43,310 bases of DNA from positions 1 through 43,310 of the forward strand of contig JAJTCK010000006.1 in assembly GCA_021323175.1 (NCBI GenBank), given 5' to 3'. A model generated the notes under the pieces. That model was not told the origin of the DNA and searched no databases. It saw only the letters and a list, made by a program, of their open reading frames with translations. Shown piece by piece: positions 23,519 to 43,310 of the stretch (positions within the stretch are counted from its first letter, which is position 1; every line of letters starts with the position of its first letter). The stretch is from Solirubrobacterales bacterium (GTDB lineage Bacteria > Actinomycetota > Thermoleophilia > Solirubrobacterales > 70-9). Made by a program: the position numbers and the translations under genes.

Positions 23519-23534
23519 GCTGCCCATTCCTTCC

Positions 23535-23702
23535 GGCGCCTGCGGGGTTAGCTGTCGGGCTCGCGCCGAAGGAGTGGCGCTACGCGTCTGGCCTGGTGGA
23601 CCTGCGATTCGCCCCGAGGCGCTGTGCGCCCCCTGGGTCCCCCGCTCCGCCACGATGACCGGGGCGGATTCGGCTCGCTATCGAGCCGCAAGTTAGCGGA
23701 CG
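23535..23702 (-). ncRNA. Cyclic-di-AMP riboswitch (ydaO/yuaA), in the leader of the Rpf-like gene
   Basis: Read on the minus strand, conserved aptamer blocks occur in the expected order: CCGAATCCG (23665-23673), GGGGGACCCAGGGGG (23629-23643), GGGGCGAATCGC (23604-23615), GCGTAGCGCCACTC, then GAGCCCGACAGCTAAC (23547-23562) and CCGCAGGCG. These are the hallmarks of the ydaO/yuaA class, which binds cyclic-di-AMP and is usually an off switch. In Actinobacteria it is known in front of Rpf and other wall hydrolase genes. The 3' edge touches the GGAAGGA ribosome site, so translation control by hiding it is likely. Boundaries are approximate. Confidence 0.88.
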
Positions 23703-38872: not shown

Positions 38873-40798
38873 TCAACCGGTCTCGGCGGCGATGCGTCCC
38901 GCGAGCTCCGCCGGGCGCAACTGCCCCACGTCTCCGCCCTCGTGCGAGCGCACTGAGATCGCGCCGGCCTCCTGTTCGCGATCGCCGACCACAAGCATGT
39001 AAGGCGCCTTGGACAGCTCCGCGTCACGGATCTTCCTGCCGACCGACTCAGAACGCTCGTCGACTTCGGCTCGCACGCCCGCGCGCTTGAGCTCGCCCGC
39101 GACCCCGATCGCATAGTCGTTGTGGCGGTCGGCGACTGGCAGGACCAAGGCCTGCACGGGCGCCAGCCACAGCGGCAATCGCCCCCCGTGGTGCTCCACC
39201 AGGATGCCCGCGAAGCGCTCCATCGATCCGAGCAGGGCGCGGTGAATCATGACCGGGGTGTGCTCGGCGTTGTCGGCGCCGGTGTAGGCCAGGTCGAAGC
39301 GCTCGGGCATGAAGAAGTCGAGCTGGCACGTACCCAGCTGCCAGCTGCGGCCGAGCGCGTCTGTGACGTGGAAGTCGATCTTCGGCCCGTAGAAGGCGCC
39401 GTCGCCGGGGTTCAGCTCGTACTCGCGGCCCGCATCCTCCAACGCTTCCCGCAAGGCCGCCTCGGCGCGCTCCCACTGCTCGGCGGTGCCGATCGACTTC
39501 TCGGGGCGCGTCGAGAGCTCCAGCTGCACGCCGGCGAATCCGAAGCGCGTGTACAGCTCGTCGATCGCCTCCAGGACGTCCAATACCTCGCCCGGGATCT
39601 GGTCCTCGGTGCAGTAGATGTGCCCGTCATCCTGAGTGAACGAGCGCACGCGCAGGAGACCGTGCAGGACCCCCTCGCGCTCGTTGCGGAAGACCTTGCC
39701 GAACTCGGCCAGGCGCAGCGGCAGATCGCGATACGAGTGCCTCTCGGCCCCGAACACGAGGCAGGCGCCGGGGCAGTTCATGGGCCTCAGCGCGTAGCGC
39801 CTGTCCCCGGAGCCCATGAAGTACATGTTGTCCTTGTAGTTGTCCCAGTGGCCCGAGCGGTGCCAGAGCTCCTCGTCGAGGACCTCCGGGGTGCGGATCT
39901 CGCGGTACCCCCGCTTCCGTAGCTGAACCCGGACCTCTTCCTGCATAAGCTCCAGCAGGGCGCTCCCGTTGGGCAGCCAGAACGGCATCCCCGGGGACTC
40001 GGGCCGGAAGCGGAAGAGGTCCAGCTCGGGACCGAGCCTGCGGTGGTCCCGCTCCCTGGCCTGCTCGAGCATCTCGAGATGCCGGTCGAGCGACCTCTGG
40101 TCGTGGAACGCGGTCCCGTAGACCCGTGTCAGCATCTGGCGGGTCTCGTCGCCGCGCCAGTAGGCGCCGGCGAGCGACGTCAGCTTGAAGGCGCCGATGT
40201 GCCCCGTCGAGGGGCCGTGAGGCCCGCGGCAGAGGTCCTCGAAGGGACCATTGCGGTACAGCGTCACGGTCTCGGCCCCCTCGTCGCGGGTCAGGTCCTC
40301 GATCAGCTCGACCTTGTAGTCCTGGCCCTCGGCGCGGAAGTGCTCGATCGCCTCGTCGGTACCCAGCTCACGGCGCTCGAACGGCTCGTCGGCGGCGACG
40401 TGCTCGCGCATGCGCTCCTCGATGCGCTCCAGGTCCTCGGGGGCCGGTGCGTCACCGTCCGGAAACTCGATGTCGTAGTAAAAGCCGTTGTCGATCGGAG
40501 GACCGATGGAGATCTTCGCCCCGGGCCACAGGTCCAGGACCGCCTCGGCGAGGACGTGCGCCGCGTCGTGGCGAACCAGCTCCAGCGCCTCCGGGCTCTT
40601 CTCGGTGATCACCTCGATCCGCTCGCCGCCGGTGAGCAGAGCCGAGAGGTCGCGCAGCTCACCGTTCACCTTCAGCGCCAGCGCGGCCTTGGCCAGCCCC
40701 GGGCCAATCGCCGCGGCGGCGTCGGCGCCGGTGGCACCGTTCTCCAGCTCGAGCTCGCTGCCGTCTGGCAGCTCCACCTTCAGGCTCGTCTCCGGCAT
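38873..40798 (-). CDS. thrS: Threonyl-tRNA synthetase
   Basis: 641 residues, normal full length. A TGS domain (1-62), the editing domain with HDAAHVLAEAV (77-87) and CRGPHGPST, then the class II core: motif 2 around FGKVFRNEREGVLHGLLRVRSFTQDDGHIYC, zinc-site residues including RPMNCPGACLVF and HRALLGSMERF, and the C-terminal anticodon-binding domain (ALVLPVADRHNDYAIGVAGELKRAGVRAEVDERSESVGRKIRDAEL). Start is ATG 40798. No T-box is seen upstream. Divergent from the riboswitch leader of the M23 gene. Confidence 0.97.
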   Translation of the reverse strand: MPETSLKVELPDGSELELENGATGADAAAAIGPGLAKAALALKVNGELRDLSALLTGGERIEVITEKSPEALELVRHDAAHVLAEAVLDLWPGAKISIGPPIDNGFYYDIEFPDGDAPAPEDLERIEERMREHVAADEPFERRELGTDEAIEHFRAEGQDYKVELIEDLTRDEGAETVTLYRNGPFEDLCRGPHGPSTGHIGAFKLTSLAGAYWRGDETRQMLTRVYGTAFHDQRSLDRHLEMLEQARERDHRRLGPELDLFRFRPESPGMPFWLPNGSALLELMQEEVRVQLRKRGYREIRTPEVLDEELWHRSGHWDNYKDNMYFMGSGDRRYALRPMNCPGACLVFGAERHSYRDLPLRLAEFGKVFRNEREGVLHGLLRVRSFTQDDGHIYCTEDQIPGEVLDVLEAIDELYTRFGFAGVQLELSTRPEKSIGTAEQWERAEAALREALEDAGREYELNPGDGAFYGPKIDFHVTDALGRSWQLGTCQLDFFMPERFDLAYTGADNAEHTPVMIHRALLGSMERFAGILVEHHGGRLPLWLAPVQALVLPVADRHNDYAIGVAGELKRAGVRAEVDERSESVGRKIRDAELSKAPYMLVVGDREQEAGAISVRSHEGGDVGQLRPAELAGRIAAETG

Positions 40799-40902
40799 GG
40801 CCCGTGATGCTAGTCAGCGGGCAGCCCGCGCCCGCATAGGGGCTCGGAACGCATCCGCGCGCAACTTCGCTCTCAACTGTTAGTTTCTCTTCACGGATGA
40901 CC

Positions 40903-41035
40903 TTGCTTAACCGATGCTCCTCCCTGGAGGGACATCGGCCGGGGGACCCAGTCCCGGGGCGAATCGCGGCGAAGCTGCCACGTAACGCGACTCTCTTTCG
41001 CGTGAGCCCGACAGCTAACTCCGGAAGCGCGAACG
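40903..41035 (+). ncRNA. Cyclic-di-AMP riboswitch (ydaO/yuaA), in the leader of the M23 peptidase gene
   Basis: The same ordered blocks as the 23535-23702 element, on the plus strand: GCTTAACCGATG at the 5' side, GGGGGACCCAGTCCC (40941-40955), GGGGCGAATCGC (40956-40967), CACGTAACGCGACTC (40979-40993), GAGCCCGACAGCTAAC (41004-41019). The match in the last block is 16 of 16 with the other copy. The 3' end is about 94 bases before the start codon, so its expression platform differs from the other one. Ligand assignment follows from the motif class; binding is untested. Confidence 0.88.
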
Positions 41036-41077
41036 AGAGAGAGAAGGTCGGTTGCGAAGTCGAAGCGTCGCCCGAAG

Positions 41078-41099
41078 CGGCCGGGGACGATCCCGGCCG
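41078..41099 (+). promoter_or_regulatory. Hairpin between riboswitch and M23 start, possible expression platform
   Basis: CGGCCGGG-gacgat-CCCGGCCG is a perfect 8-bp inverted repeat with a 6-base loop. It ends 30 bases before the GTG start and lacks a T tract, so it is more likely an anti-sequestering or Rho-related element than an intrinsic terminator. Confidence 0.45.
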
Positions 41100-41128
41100 G
41101 CACCCCGCGTGAGGGCCGCGGTCGCTCC

Positions 41129-42163
41129 GTGACGCTCCGCGGAGGAGCAGTTGCGACCCTGGTCGCCGTCGCGGCGCTGCTCGTCCTCGCGGCCTCGGCC
41201 CCCGCCGCCCAGTTCGGATCGCGGCCGCTGAAGATGGGATCGAAGGGCAAGGACGTCCGCGTCCTGCAGCGCAGCCTGACGCGCCTCGGGCAGTCCACGC
41301 CCGTCACGGGCTACTTCTGGAAGCTCACCAAGCGGAGCACCAAAGGGCTCGAGCGCGCGCAGCAGTGGCGGGTGGACGGCAAGGTCTCGCGCAAGGATGC
41401 CGCCCGGATCGCCGGACTGGCCGCCCAGGCGCCCAAGGCGCCCACAGCCACGACCGGGACCGTCTACTTCGTACGCGGGCTTCTGAAGCCGGAGATCGCC
41501 CTCACGGCGCAGTCCCCCGGAAGCGCGGCAGTGGACGTGGTGGACGTGGCCTCCGGCGCCGCCGTCGCCCGCCTCACCGTCAGCTTCGAGTCGGCCGGCA
41601 CGGCCGACTCGCGCTGGAACGGCCTGACGGCGTCGGGCGGTATCGCGCCCGACGGCAGCTACCGCTTCGATCTCGCCGAGCCCGGCGACGCCCGGGCTGC
41701 GATCACCGGCGGCCAGACGGACGAGTTCCGCCTTCGCCGCCACACCTTCCCGGTACCCGGGCAGCACGACTACGGAGGAGCCGGGTCAAGGTTCGGGGCG
41801 CCGCGCTCCGGCCATACCCACCAAGGCCAGGACATGGCCGCCGCCTGCGGTGAGCCGCTGCTCGCCACCGAGACCGGCACGGTCGCCGCCAAGGCCTACC
41901 AGGCCGGCGGCGCGGGCCACTACCTCGTGATCCAAGGGGCGGTCACGGGCACCGCCCACGTCTACATGCACATGGTCAAGGCATCCTGGGCCGACAAGGG
42001 AGAGGTGCTCTTCGCCGGGCAGCAACTCGGCAAGGTGGGCACGACCGGCTCCTCGACCGGGTGCCACCTTCACTTCGAGCGCTGGACCGCTCCCGGTTGG
42101 TACGTCGGCGGGAAGCCGTATGACCCGCTGAAGGAGCTGCGCTACTGGGACTCGTACTCGTAG
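41129..42163 (+). CDS. Secreted M23-family peptidase with peptidoglycan-binding domain
   Basis: 344 residues from GTG 41129. A signal peptide (hydrophobic core 7-22, APAAQ cut region) is followed by a PG_binding_1-like domain (about 35-98, LKMGSKGKDVRVLQRSLTRLG), a strand-rich FlgD/Ig-like middle (about 110-205, with ADSRWNGLTASGGIAPDGSYRF), and an M23 peptidase domain. Its zinc ligands are H231 and D235 (HQGQD) and H315; H281 (YMHM) and H313 (GCHLHFE) are the catalytic histidines. M23 enzymes cut peptide cross-links in peptidoglycan. Controlled by a cyclic-di-AMP riboswitch. The stop codon is inside an 18-bp tandem repeat. Confidence 0.92.
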   Translation: MTLRGGAVATLVAVAALLVLAASAPAAQFGSRPLKMGSKGKDVRVLQRSLTRLGQSTPVTGYFWKLTKRSTKGLERAQQWRVDGKVSRKDAARIAGLAAQAPKAPTATTGTVYFVRGLLKPEIALTAQSPGSAAVDVVDVASGAAVARLTVSFESAGTADSRWNGLTASGGIAPDGSYRFDLAEPGDARAAITGGQTDEFRLRRHTFPVPGQHDYGGAGSRFGAPRSGHTHQGQDMAAACGEPLLATETGTVAAKAYQAGGAGHYLVIQGAVTGTAHVYMHMVKASWADKGEVLFAGQQLGKVGTTGSSTGCHLHFERWTAPGWYVGGKPYDPLKELRYWDSYS

Positions 42164-42187
42164 GGCGGGTCGTACTCGTAGGGCGGG
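42152..42187. repeat. Tandem 18-bp duplication spanning the M23 stop codon
   Basis: TCGTACTCGTAGGGCGGG occurs twice, head to tail and exact (42152-42169 and 42170-42187). The first copy carries the last codons and the TAG of the M23 gene; the second repeats the same TAG in frame. It may be a recent slippage duplication. Confidence 0.85.
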
Positions 42188-42212
42188 GCGGAGGTCGTTG
42201 CCTCCGCCCCGC
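42183..42212. terminator. Strong GC hairpin between convergent genes
   Basis: GCGGGGCGGAGG-tcgttg-CCTCCGCCCCGC is a perfect 12-bp inverted repeat with a 6-base loop between the M23 stop (42161) and the stop of the convergent gene (42224). No T tract on either side. Probably a bidirectional terminator. Confidence 0.7.
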
Positions 42213-42223
42213 GCCCCGCGAGA

Positions 42224-42868
42224 CTAGGTGGCCGGGTCCACCCTGAACTTCTTCAGCTTCGGGTTGGCCGGCTTGTAGAACAGCGCAATCGCCGGCTTCA
42301 TCCGCCAGTTCTTCGGCAGGTTGCCCGCCGGGCGGTTCAGGAACTGCCTGAACAGCTTCGATGCGTTCTCGCAGGTGATGATCGATCCCCGCGGGATTAC
42401 GAGCCTGTAGCCGCCCTTGGGGAAGCTCAGCGGTCCGATCGTGTCGTTGTTCAGGACTTGGAACTGGCCGGGGCAGACGCTGCCGTAGGTCGCGGGCGTG
42501 TTGCCGCCTCCACCGCTGCGCGCCACCGAGAACCCAGGCTGCCCGTTCAGCGAGAAGAGGGCCTTGCCCTTGCCCTGGGCGACCACCTTCCAGCCGCCGC
42601 CGAGCTTGCCGTCGTAGTCCTGAAGGAAGCGCGTGAAGAGCTTCGAGGCCGATACGCACGATACCCCCGCCCCCCGCACGGTGACCATGTAGTTGCCGGC
42701 CGGCAGCACGGCCGAGCCGATGCGGTCGTTGTGGAGCACCCTGAAGCTGGCCGGGCACGCTGCTGCCGCCGCCCCGGATGCCTGCTGTTCGCCGGTGGCC
42801 GCCGCGCCCGGCGCCGTGATCGCCAGCGCCGCCAGGGCCGCCCCGAACGTGACCGTCGTCCTCTTCAT
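42224..42868 (-). CDS. Secreted protein with two copies of a Cys-paired repeat domain
   Basis: 214 residues from ATG 42868, with GGGAGAAGAG upstream. A signal peptide (TFGAALAALAITAPGAAA) is followed by two related units: 38-95 (CPASFRVLHNDRIGSAVLPAGNYMVTV...CVSASKLFTRFLQDY...GGGWKV) and 132-190 (CPGQFQVLNNDTIGPLSFPKGGYRLVI...CENASKLFRQFLNRP...KNWRM). Each unit has two cysteines (38/71 and 132/166) that could form a disulfide outside the cell, and a helix S/ASKLFxxFL. The linker is Gly-rich. I do not recognise the domain; it looks like a small beta module duplicated in tandem. Convergent with the M23 gene, suggesting a cell-surface neighbourhood. Confidence 0.82.
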   Translation of the reverse strand: MKRTTVTFGAALAALAITAPGAAATGEQQASGAAAAACPASFRVLHNDRIGSAVLPAGNYMVTVRGAGVSCVSASKLFTRFLQDYDGKLGGGWKVVAQGKGKALFSLNGQPGFSVARSGGGGNTPATYGSVCPGQFQVLNNDTIGPLSFPKGGYRLVIPRGSIITCENASKLFRQFLNRPAGNLPKNWRMKPAIALFYKPANPKLKKFRVDPAT

Positions 42869-42980
42869 CGCGTCTCTTCTCCCTCGTCGTCGAGATTGTG
42901 GAGCCCTTCTAACACCAGGTTCTCGCAGATGTTGCTGGCTCCTGCCCAGTCGGGTGGTCCATGCGATTCCCTCGGGCCGC

Positions 42981-43310
42981 CTACGCCGCGAGTGGGATCG
43001 CGATCGCGAGGTAGACCGCAATCGAGAGCAGGTCCTGGATCACGGTCGCGACCGGGCCGGACCCGAACGCGGGGTCGCGCCCCAGGCGCTGGAACGCCCA
43101 TGGGAGCGCCATCGCGACGAGGGTGGCTATCGAGCAGCTGGCGAACAGGGCGAGGCCCACAGCGATCGCAACATCGAGCTCGCTCCAGCCGATCAGGACA
43201 AACGGGACGAAAGCGAACCCGACCAGCGCTCCGGTGATTGCGCCGGTCGCCACCTCGCGCTTGAAGACGCCCCTGATCGTCACTCCGACCGACAGGCCCC
43301 TGATAAGGAT
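42981..43310 (-). CDS. mgtE: MgtE-type magnesium transporter, C-terminal end (cut by right edge)
   Basis: The 109 visible residues are the C-terminus of a longer protein whose start lies beyond the window; a GTG at 43283 is in frame but is not the real start. Three or four membrane helices are seen. The phrase DPAFGSGPVATVIQDLLSIAVYLAIA is the MgtE signature, where the first Asp helps form the magnesium pore, and ILIRGLSVGVTIRGVFKREVATGAITGAL is the usual preceding helix and loop. The cytosolic gating domain (N-domain and CBS pair) should be encoded further right, or may be absent in a split protein. Confidence 0.88.
   Translation of the reverse strand: MLIRGLSVGVTIRGVFKREVATGAITGALVGFAFVPFVLIGWSELDVAIAVGLALFASCSIATLVAMALPWAFQRLGRDPAFGSGPVATVIQDLLSIAVYLAIAIPLAA

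What the first reader, a model, noticed from the sequence alone, without database searches (positions are those of the whole stretch)
40903..41035. Second cyclic-di-AMP riboswitch, on the opposite strand, before an M23 peptidase
The 16-base block GAGCCCGACAGCTAAC is identical to the first element and the GGGGGACCCAG and GGGGCGAATCGC blocks match too, yet the rest is diverged and the spacer to the start is about 94 bases instead of about 15. The P1 pairing and platform seem different, so the two may respond differently to the same ligand.
Basis: partly seen in the sequence, partly recalled or inferred. Interest (0 to 1): 0.6.

Follow-up and report, generated by a model that had tools for sequence, protein, structure and literature searches.

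The report
c-di-AMP riboswitch with relic leader gene
This is a genuine RNA switch for the bacterial signal c-di-AMP in front of a cell-wall-cutting enzyme gene, and the odd gap behind it is the shrunken remains of a lost neighbouring gene that probably still passes the switch's signal on to the enzyme.

Summary
The element is real. Window 40894-41044(+) is a full-length RF00379 (ydaO-type c-di-AMP) riboswitch, 65.6 bits against a cut-off of 38. The genome has ten such elements and one diadenylate cyclase domain. In the two closest syntenic relatives (thrS | riboswitch | rlpA-like gene | M23) an rlpA-like gene fills that place, and its stop overlaps the M23 start (GTGA or ATGA). In the window rlpA is reduced to about 80 bases. 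Its Shine-Dalgarno (SD) region, start (TTG 41052), last codons and the GTGA overlap at 41129-41132 survive as a 26-codon leader ORF. Bases 41065-41131 align to the last 69 bases of the relative's rlpA better than any of 1000 shuffles or 1000 random slices. The switch itself looks ordinary for this order: an aptamer loop pairs with the strand beside the SD (covariation), so c-di-AMP should block initiation. The most likely mechanism is therefore: c-di-AMP shuts the leader ORF, and M23 follows by termination-reinitiation. Relay function, ligand response and assembly accuracy are untested. Known riboswitch class, unusual architecture (1 of 168 elements).

The parts
40894..41044 (+). c-di-AMP (ydaO-type) riboswitch aptamer including 3' tail
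   Evidence: RF00379, 65.6 bits, full model length
40904..40907 (+). P1 5' strand (UGCU), pairs with 41026-41029 (AGCG)
   Evidence: structure line of the cmscan alignment
40985..41003 (+). hairpin ACGCG-ACUCUCUUU-CGCGU whose loop can pair with the SD-side tail
   Evidence: read from sequence and cmscan structure line
40991..40998 (+). pseudoknot 5' strand CUCUCUUU
   Evidence: complementary to 41036-41043, 8 pairs incl. one G-U; register read; complementarity scored
41026..41029 (+). P1 3' strand
41036..41043 (+). pseudoknot 3' strand AGAGAGAG, directly before SD-like AAGG 41044-41047
41052..41132 (+). leader ORF, 26 codons, TTG start, TGA stop 41130-41132: relic of the rlpA-like gene
   Evidence: only short leader ORF coupled to a long ORF among 168 elements; start at the position of the rlpA start in G001/G003
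41065..41131 (+). stretch homologous to the last 69 bases of the rlpA-like gene of G001
   Evidence: local alignment score 69; 1000 shuffles max 54, 1000 window slices max 53
41129..41132 (+). GTGA stop/start overlap (leader TGA, M23 GTG)
   Evidence: same overlap GTGA in G001, ATGA in G003
41129..42163 (+). M23 peptidase: signal-peptide-like N terminus, PG_binding_1, FlgD_ig, Peptidase_M23
   Evidence: signal peptide judged by eye
38873..40798 (-). threonyl-tRNA synthetase gene, divergent; synteny anchor
   Evidence: Pfam TGS, tRNA_SAD, tRNA-synt_2b, HGTP_anticodon; same neighbour in G001 and G003
23525..23685 (-). first c-di-AMP riboswitch of the window, before a gene with a Transglycosylas domain
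   Evidence: RF00379, 57.2 bits; Pfam PF06737

Best explanation
A ydaO-type c-di-AMP riboswitch controls translation of a cell-wall hydrolase operon. With c-di-AMP bound, the loop 40991-40998 holds the tail 41036-41043 in a pseudoknot next to the SD (41044-41047), so ribosomes cannot start at TTG 41052 (OFF switch). In the ancestor the first gene was an rlpA-like (PG_binding + DPBB) gene whose stop overlapped the start of the M23 gene. In this lineage nearly all of rlpA was deleted, but its start region, its last codons and the stop/start overlap remained as a 26-codon leader ORF. M23 is therefore probably translated by termination-reinitiation from the leader ORF and stays under c-di-AMP control through that relay. 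Shown by computation: riboswitch identity, loop-tail covariation in the order, rlpA relic, conserved GTGA overlap, synteny. Inferred: ligand binding, OFF sign, translation of the leader ORF, reinitiation.
For: RF00379 match over the full model. The two nearest relatives are syntenic (thrS, M23 and, in G001, the downstream ORF) and carry riboswitch-rlpA-M23, with GTGA/ATGA overlaps. Window 41065-41131 aligns to the 3' end of G001 rlpA and ends at the same stop; 0 of 1000 slices and no shuffle is as good. Codon log-odds switch frame where the relic does: 41057-41104 fits the frame reading RPGTIPAGT (G001 LGTIPVGT), 41105-41128 fits the leader frame RVRAAVA (G001 EVKAVVA). The own genome has no full-length counterpart of that rlpA, only paralogues. 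TTG 41052 sits where the rlpA ATG sits in G001/G003. Loop-tail pairs: at least 6 Watson-Crick pairs in 128 of 168 elements, against 65.5 on average (max 79 of 300) with tails swapped. No terminator-like site. A C. glutamicum c-di-AMP riboswitch was reported to act on translation (PMC9960051, passages).
Against: The rlpA relic similarity is seen against G001 only; G003 gives 37, within chance. In the window the SD-like AAGG lies just outside the pseudoknot strand instead of inside it. TTG is a weak start and the leader ORF has non-coding-like codon usage (-16.8 bits), as expected of a relic but also of an untranslated stretch. M23 could have lost its coupling. The S. coelicolor rpfA switch is reported to act by transcription termination (PMC10117811, passages). 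The 168 elements are 168 of about 374 matches counted (my sum of its table), mostly the best-scoring ones, and are not phylogenetically independent.
Confidence: 0.62

Rival explanations
1. The M23 protein itself begins right behind the riboswitch, with a 26-residue N-terminal extension in the M23 frame; the frame offset behind TTG 41052 is an assembly or sequencing error, or a rare start codon is used.
For: The M23 frame is open back to 41051 and its codons score 1.6 bits for 41057-41128, like the weakest in-gene windows (5th percentile 0.7); 1.6% of shuffles reach that. In 130 of 168 elements a start lies 0-22 bases after the pseudoknot strand. Some relatives do seem to use AUC/AUU starts behind this riboswitch.
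Against: The coding signal is explained by rlpA homology and changes frame inside the stretch as rlpA predicts. The M23 start with NUGA overlap is conserved in G001 and G003. G001 M23 starts at the same place as GTG 41129.
Confidence: 0.15
2. The deletion of rlpA is an assembly artefact of this metagenome bin; the true locus is an ordinary riboswitch-rlpA-M23 operon.
For: The genome is a 169-contig bin, and contig C3 carries a 93.7% identical variant of window 42071-43310, so strain mixture exists.
Against: One continuous contig; the own genome has no other full-length copy; the remaining stretch has several small indels against G001, as expected of an older relic and not of a fresh mis-join.
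Confidence: 0.13
3. The 94-base stretch is a distinct expression platform (attenuator or terminator) giving this element a different response.
For: The spacer is the longest to a main ORF start in the own genome by the usual start rule.
Against: No terminator-like site; the stretch is homologous to coding sequence; a start codon lies at the usual distance.
Confidence: 0.05
4. The leader ORF is inert debris: M23 is translated independently from a weak SD, so the riboswitch no longer controls it.
For: A GAGGG stretch lies 13 bases before 41129; leader codon usage is poor.
Against: Aptamer core, P1, loop-tail complementarity and overlap are all kept; 121 of 135 aptamer alignment columns are identical to G001, which suggests continued selection.
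Confidence: 0.2

Closest known systems
[quoted passage not shown]
   Same: Sequence, P1, conserved core, loop-tail pairing; the crystallised ydaO RNA quoted in PMC5393176 (passages) has the same loop/tail complementarity (CUCCUUCG/CGAAGGAG) and a pseudoknot is described there
   Different: Most studied Firmicutes members control transcription terminators (recalled, and for B. subtilis); here the tail leads straight to an SD and start codon
C. glutamicum nlpC c-di-AMP riboswitch (PMC9960051, passages)
   Same: Cell-wall peptidase target, no canonical terminator, proposed CTCC:GGAG pseudoknot hiding the RBS, translational OFF
   Different: No leader ORF between switch and peptidase is described in the passages seen; this work adds covariation across an order
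M. tuberculosis ppe2 B12 riboswitch with uORF and AUGA overlap (PMC11260477, passages)
   Same: Riboswitch controls a short uORF whose stop overlaps the main start; main gene depends on uORF by termination-reinitiation
   Different: Different ligand and aptamer; here the leader ORF is visibly the relic of a full gene
Streptomyces rpfA ydaO-like riboswitch (PMC10117811, passages)
   Same: Actinobacterial cell-wall hydrolase regulon under c-di-AMP
   Different: Reported to cause premature transcription termination

Membership tests
c-di-AMP riboswitch RF00379 | covariance-model score above the gathering score over the whole model | tested here: met
   65.6 vs 38 bits, positions 1-134 of 134
c-di-AMP riboswitch RF00379 | P1 and conserved core pairs | tested here: met
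   cmscan alignment with four non-standard columns marked
c-di-AMP riboswitch RF00379 | pseudoknot between hairpin loop and 3' tail | tested here: met
   8 pairs incl. one G-U here; covariation in 168 elements
c-di-AMP riboswitch RF00379 | binds c-di-AMP | not testable with these tools
   needs in-line probing or ITC; a DAC domain gene is present in the genome
translational (SD-hiding) c-di-AMP riboswitch | start codon and SD directly behind the pseudoknot strand, no terminator | tested here: met
   TTG 8 bases after the strand; no terminator-like site; typical distances
translational (SD-hiding) c-di-AMP riboswitch | SD inside the pairing strand | tested here: inconclusive
   72 of 83 elements with a recognisable SD overlap by at least one base; here AAGG abuts the strand
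uORF relay with NUGA stop/start overlap (ppe2-like) | short ORF with SD and start, stop overlapping the main start | tested here: met
   41052-41132 and GTG 41129
uORF relay with NUGA stop/start overlap (ppe2-like) | main gene depends on uORF translation | not testable with these tools
   needs reporter mutants
rlpA-like gene (DPBB_1) | DPBB domain encoded between riboswitch and M23 | tested here: not met
   present in G001 and G003; only the last ~69 bases left in the window

The most novel reading that the evidence does not exclude
[quoted passage not shown] This would be the first c-di-AMP riboswitch with such a relay (as far as searches show) and a visible origin for riboswitch-linked uORFs.
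Probability: 0.45. Interest if true: 0.6.

Novelty: new variant of a known kind. Interest (0 to 1): 0.42.

Why it matters
It removes a misleading 'different platform' reading and replaces it with a testable history: operon gene, deletion, leader ORF. The covariation in 168 elements gives evolutionary support to the SD-hiding pseudoknot that was only proposed for the C. glutamicum switch. It also shows how dense the c-di-AMP regulon of cell-wall enzymes is in this order: 2 to 11 elements per genome, ten in this 2.3 Mb genome.

Tried and rejected
Tried: terminator and sigma-70 scan, nothing found. Folding the leader without pseudoknots gives a long-range fold that also pairs the CUCUCUUU stretch with the tail; it cannot show a pseudoknot and I did not build on it. 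Codon test for an N-terminal extension of M23 at first favoured a frame error; the G001 operon explained the signal better, and the per-segment test settled my preference. The G003 rlpA does not align to the relic above chance. My first start-finding rule picked wrong frames for several loci, so I used the rule for the leader-ORF count. Rows dropped: 3 of 171 pattern matches, off-register or chance. [quoted passage not shown] what I say of Firmicutes members beyond searches is recalled. That no c-di-AMP riboswitch with such a leader ORF is in print rests on searches in an open-licence library only. PMC10907184 (passages) already lists ydaO among riboswitches whose ligand-bound aptamer docks the expression platform and hides the RBS, so that mechanism is not claimed as new.

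Full report
What is there. Window 40894-41044(+) matches Rfam RF00379 over its full length (65.6 bits, gathering score 38). The own genome (2.30 Mb, 169 contigs, 93.6% complete) holds ten elements, and 61 of 61 searched genomes of the order, own included, hold 2 to 11 each. The own genome has one diadenylate cyclase (DAC) domain gene. The gene behind the element encodes PG_binding_1, FlgD_ig and Peptidase_M23 domains.

How the switch works in this order. I collected 171 pattern matches from the fetched loci, dropped 3, and kept 168, of about 374 matches by my sum of its table. In most elements the hairpin before the CAGCTAAC core has a loop facing a tail just behind P1. The two strands change together: CUCUUUC/GAAAGAG, CUCC/GGAG, ACUCAC/GUGAGU (L006), CGUUUUC/GAAAACG (L183). 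At least 6 consecutive Watson-Crick pairs are possible in 128 of 168 elements, against a mean of 65.5 and a maximum of 79 in 300 rounds with tails swapped between elements. The sequences are related, so this is not a formal probability. In 130 elements with at least 5 pairs and an ORF start behind, the start lies a median of 6.5 bases after the pairing strand; 83 of those 130 have an SD by my word list, and it overlaps the strand in 72. This fits an SD-hiding OFF switch, as proposed for C. glutamicum nlpC and listed in a review. In the window the strand is 41036-41043 and AAGG 41044-41047 abuts it; TTG 41052 follows 8 bases after the strand.

The long spacer. In the own paralogue L007 and in G001, G003 and G055 the start codon follows the tail at once. 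In the window, too, a start codon (TTG 41052) sits there, but it opens a 26-codon ORF that ends in TGA 41130-41132, overlapping GTG 41129 of the M23 ORF. Of 168 elements only this one has such a coupled short leader ORF. The relatives explain it. In G001 (same genus, M23 64% identical) and G003 (same family) the order is thrS (divergent), riboswitch, an rlpA-like gene (PG_binding_1 + DPBB_1), M23; the rlpA stop overlaps the M23 start as GTGA and ATGA. The window has the same order without rlpA. Bases 41065-41131 align with bases 585-653 of the 654-base G001 rlpA (score 69; best of 1000 shuffles 54, best of 1000 window slices 53), and the alignment runs on through the GTGA overlap. The peptide end RVRAAVAP* matches EVKAVVAP*; the part before it matches in another frame (RPGTIPAGT / LGTIPVGT), so small indels followed or came with the large deletion. 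The start MRSRSVAR resembles MRQRALFR of G001, a short similarity that I did not test. Against G003 rlpA the same stretch gives only a chance score (37). The own genome has no full-length counterpart elsewhere, only paralogues, the best two on C59 and C160, both also behind riboswitches.

Interpretation. rlpA is present in both outgroups with the same neighbours, so it was most simply lost in the window's lineage. What survived is what coupling needs: the riboswitch-controlled SD and start, a short ORF, and the stop/start overlap. Termination-reinitiation from a uORF with an AUGA overlap under a riboswitch has been shown for M. tuberculosis ppe2. I therefore expect c-di-AMP to repress M23 through the leader ORF. 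This step is inference.

Against it. TTG is weak, leader codon usage is poor, the relic homology rests on one relative, and the locus comes from one contig of a metagenome bin that seems to contain strain variants. If the relay is dead, M23 would be constitutive or start from a weak SD.

Two elements compared. They differ in sequence (89 of 149 alignment columns identical) and in the number of loop-tail pairs (6 Watson-Crick in the first; 8 with one G-U in the second; and reading). A difference in ligand response cannot be judged from this.

Noticed in passing
L091, L118, L125, L129, L131, L139, L147, L150, L156, L171 (7 genomes, all genus g10): Ten riboswitch-controlled secreted proteins with a YDCSG motif (NlpC-like by recall; 4 of 10 tested, no Pfam hit) appear to start with AUC (9) or AUU (1), 6-7 bases after GGAG; in several no ATG/GTG/TTG precedes the signal-peptide-like stretch.
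   Followed up: partly
L009, L121; L033, L081, L089, L104, L143; L036, L102: Small ORFs of 40-48 codons with one hydrophobic stretch directly behind c-di-AMP riboswitches, in at least three sequence groups conserved between genomes: possible c-di-AMP-controlled small membrane proteins.
   Followed up: partly
window 42071-43310 and G000:C3:1-1216: Contig C3 of the same bin is 93.7% identical to the window's right end and begins inside the M23 gene: strain mixture or duplication.
   Followed up: no
window 40874-40886: CAACTGTTAGTTT upstream of the aptamer is kept in G001 although no sigma-70-like promoter was found; may be the promoter region.
   Followed up: no
L051 second element (G041:C3), L172 (G045), L008 (own): A few elements lack clear loop-tail complementarity; they may use another platform.
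   Followed up: no
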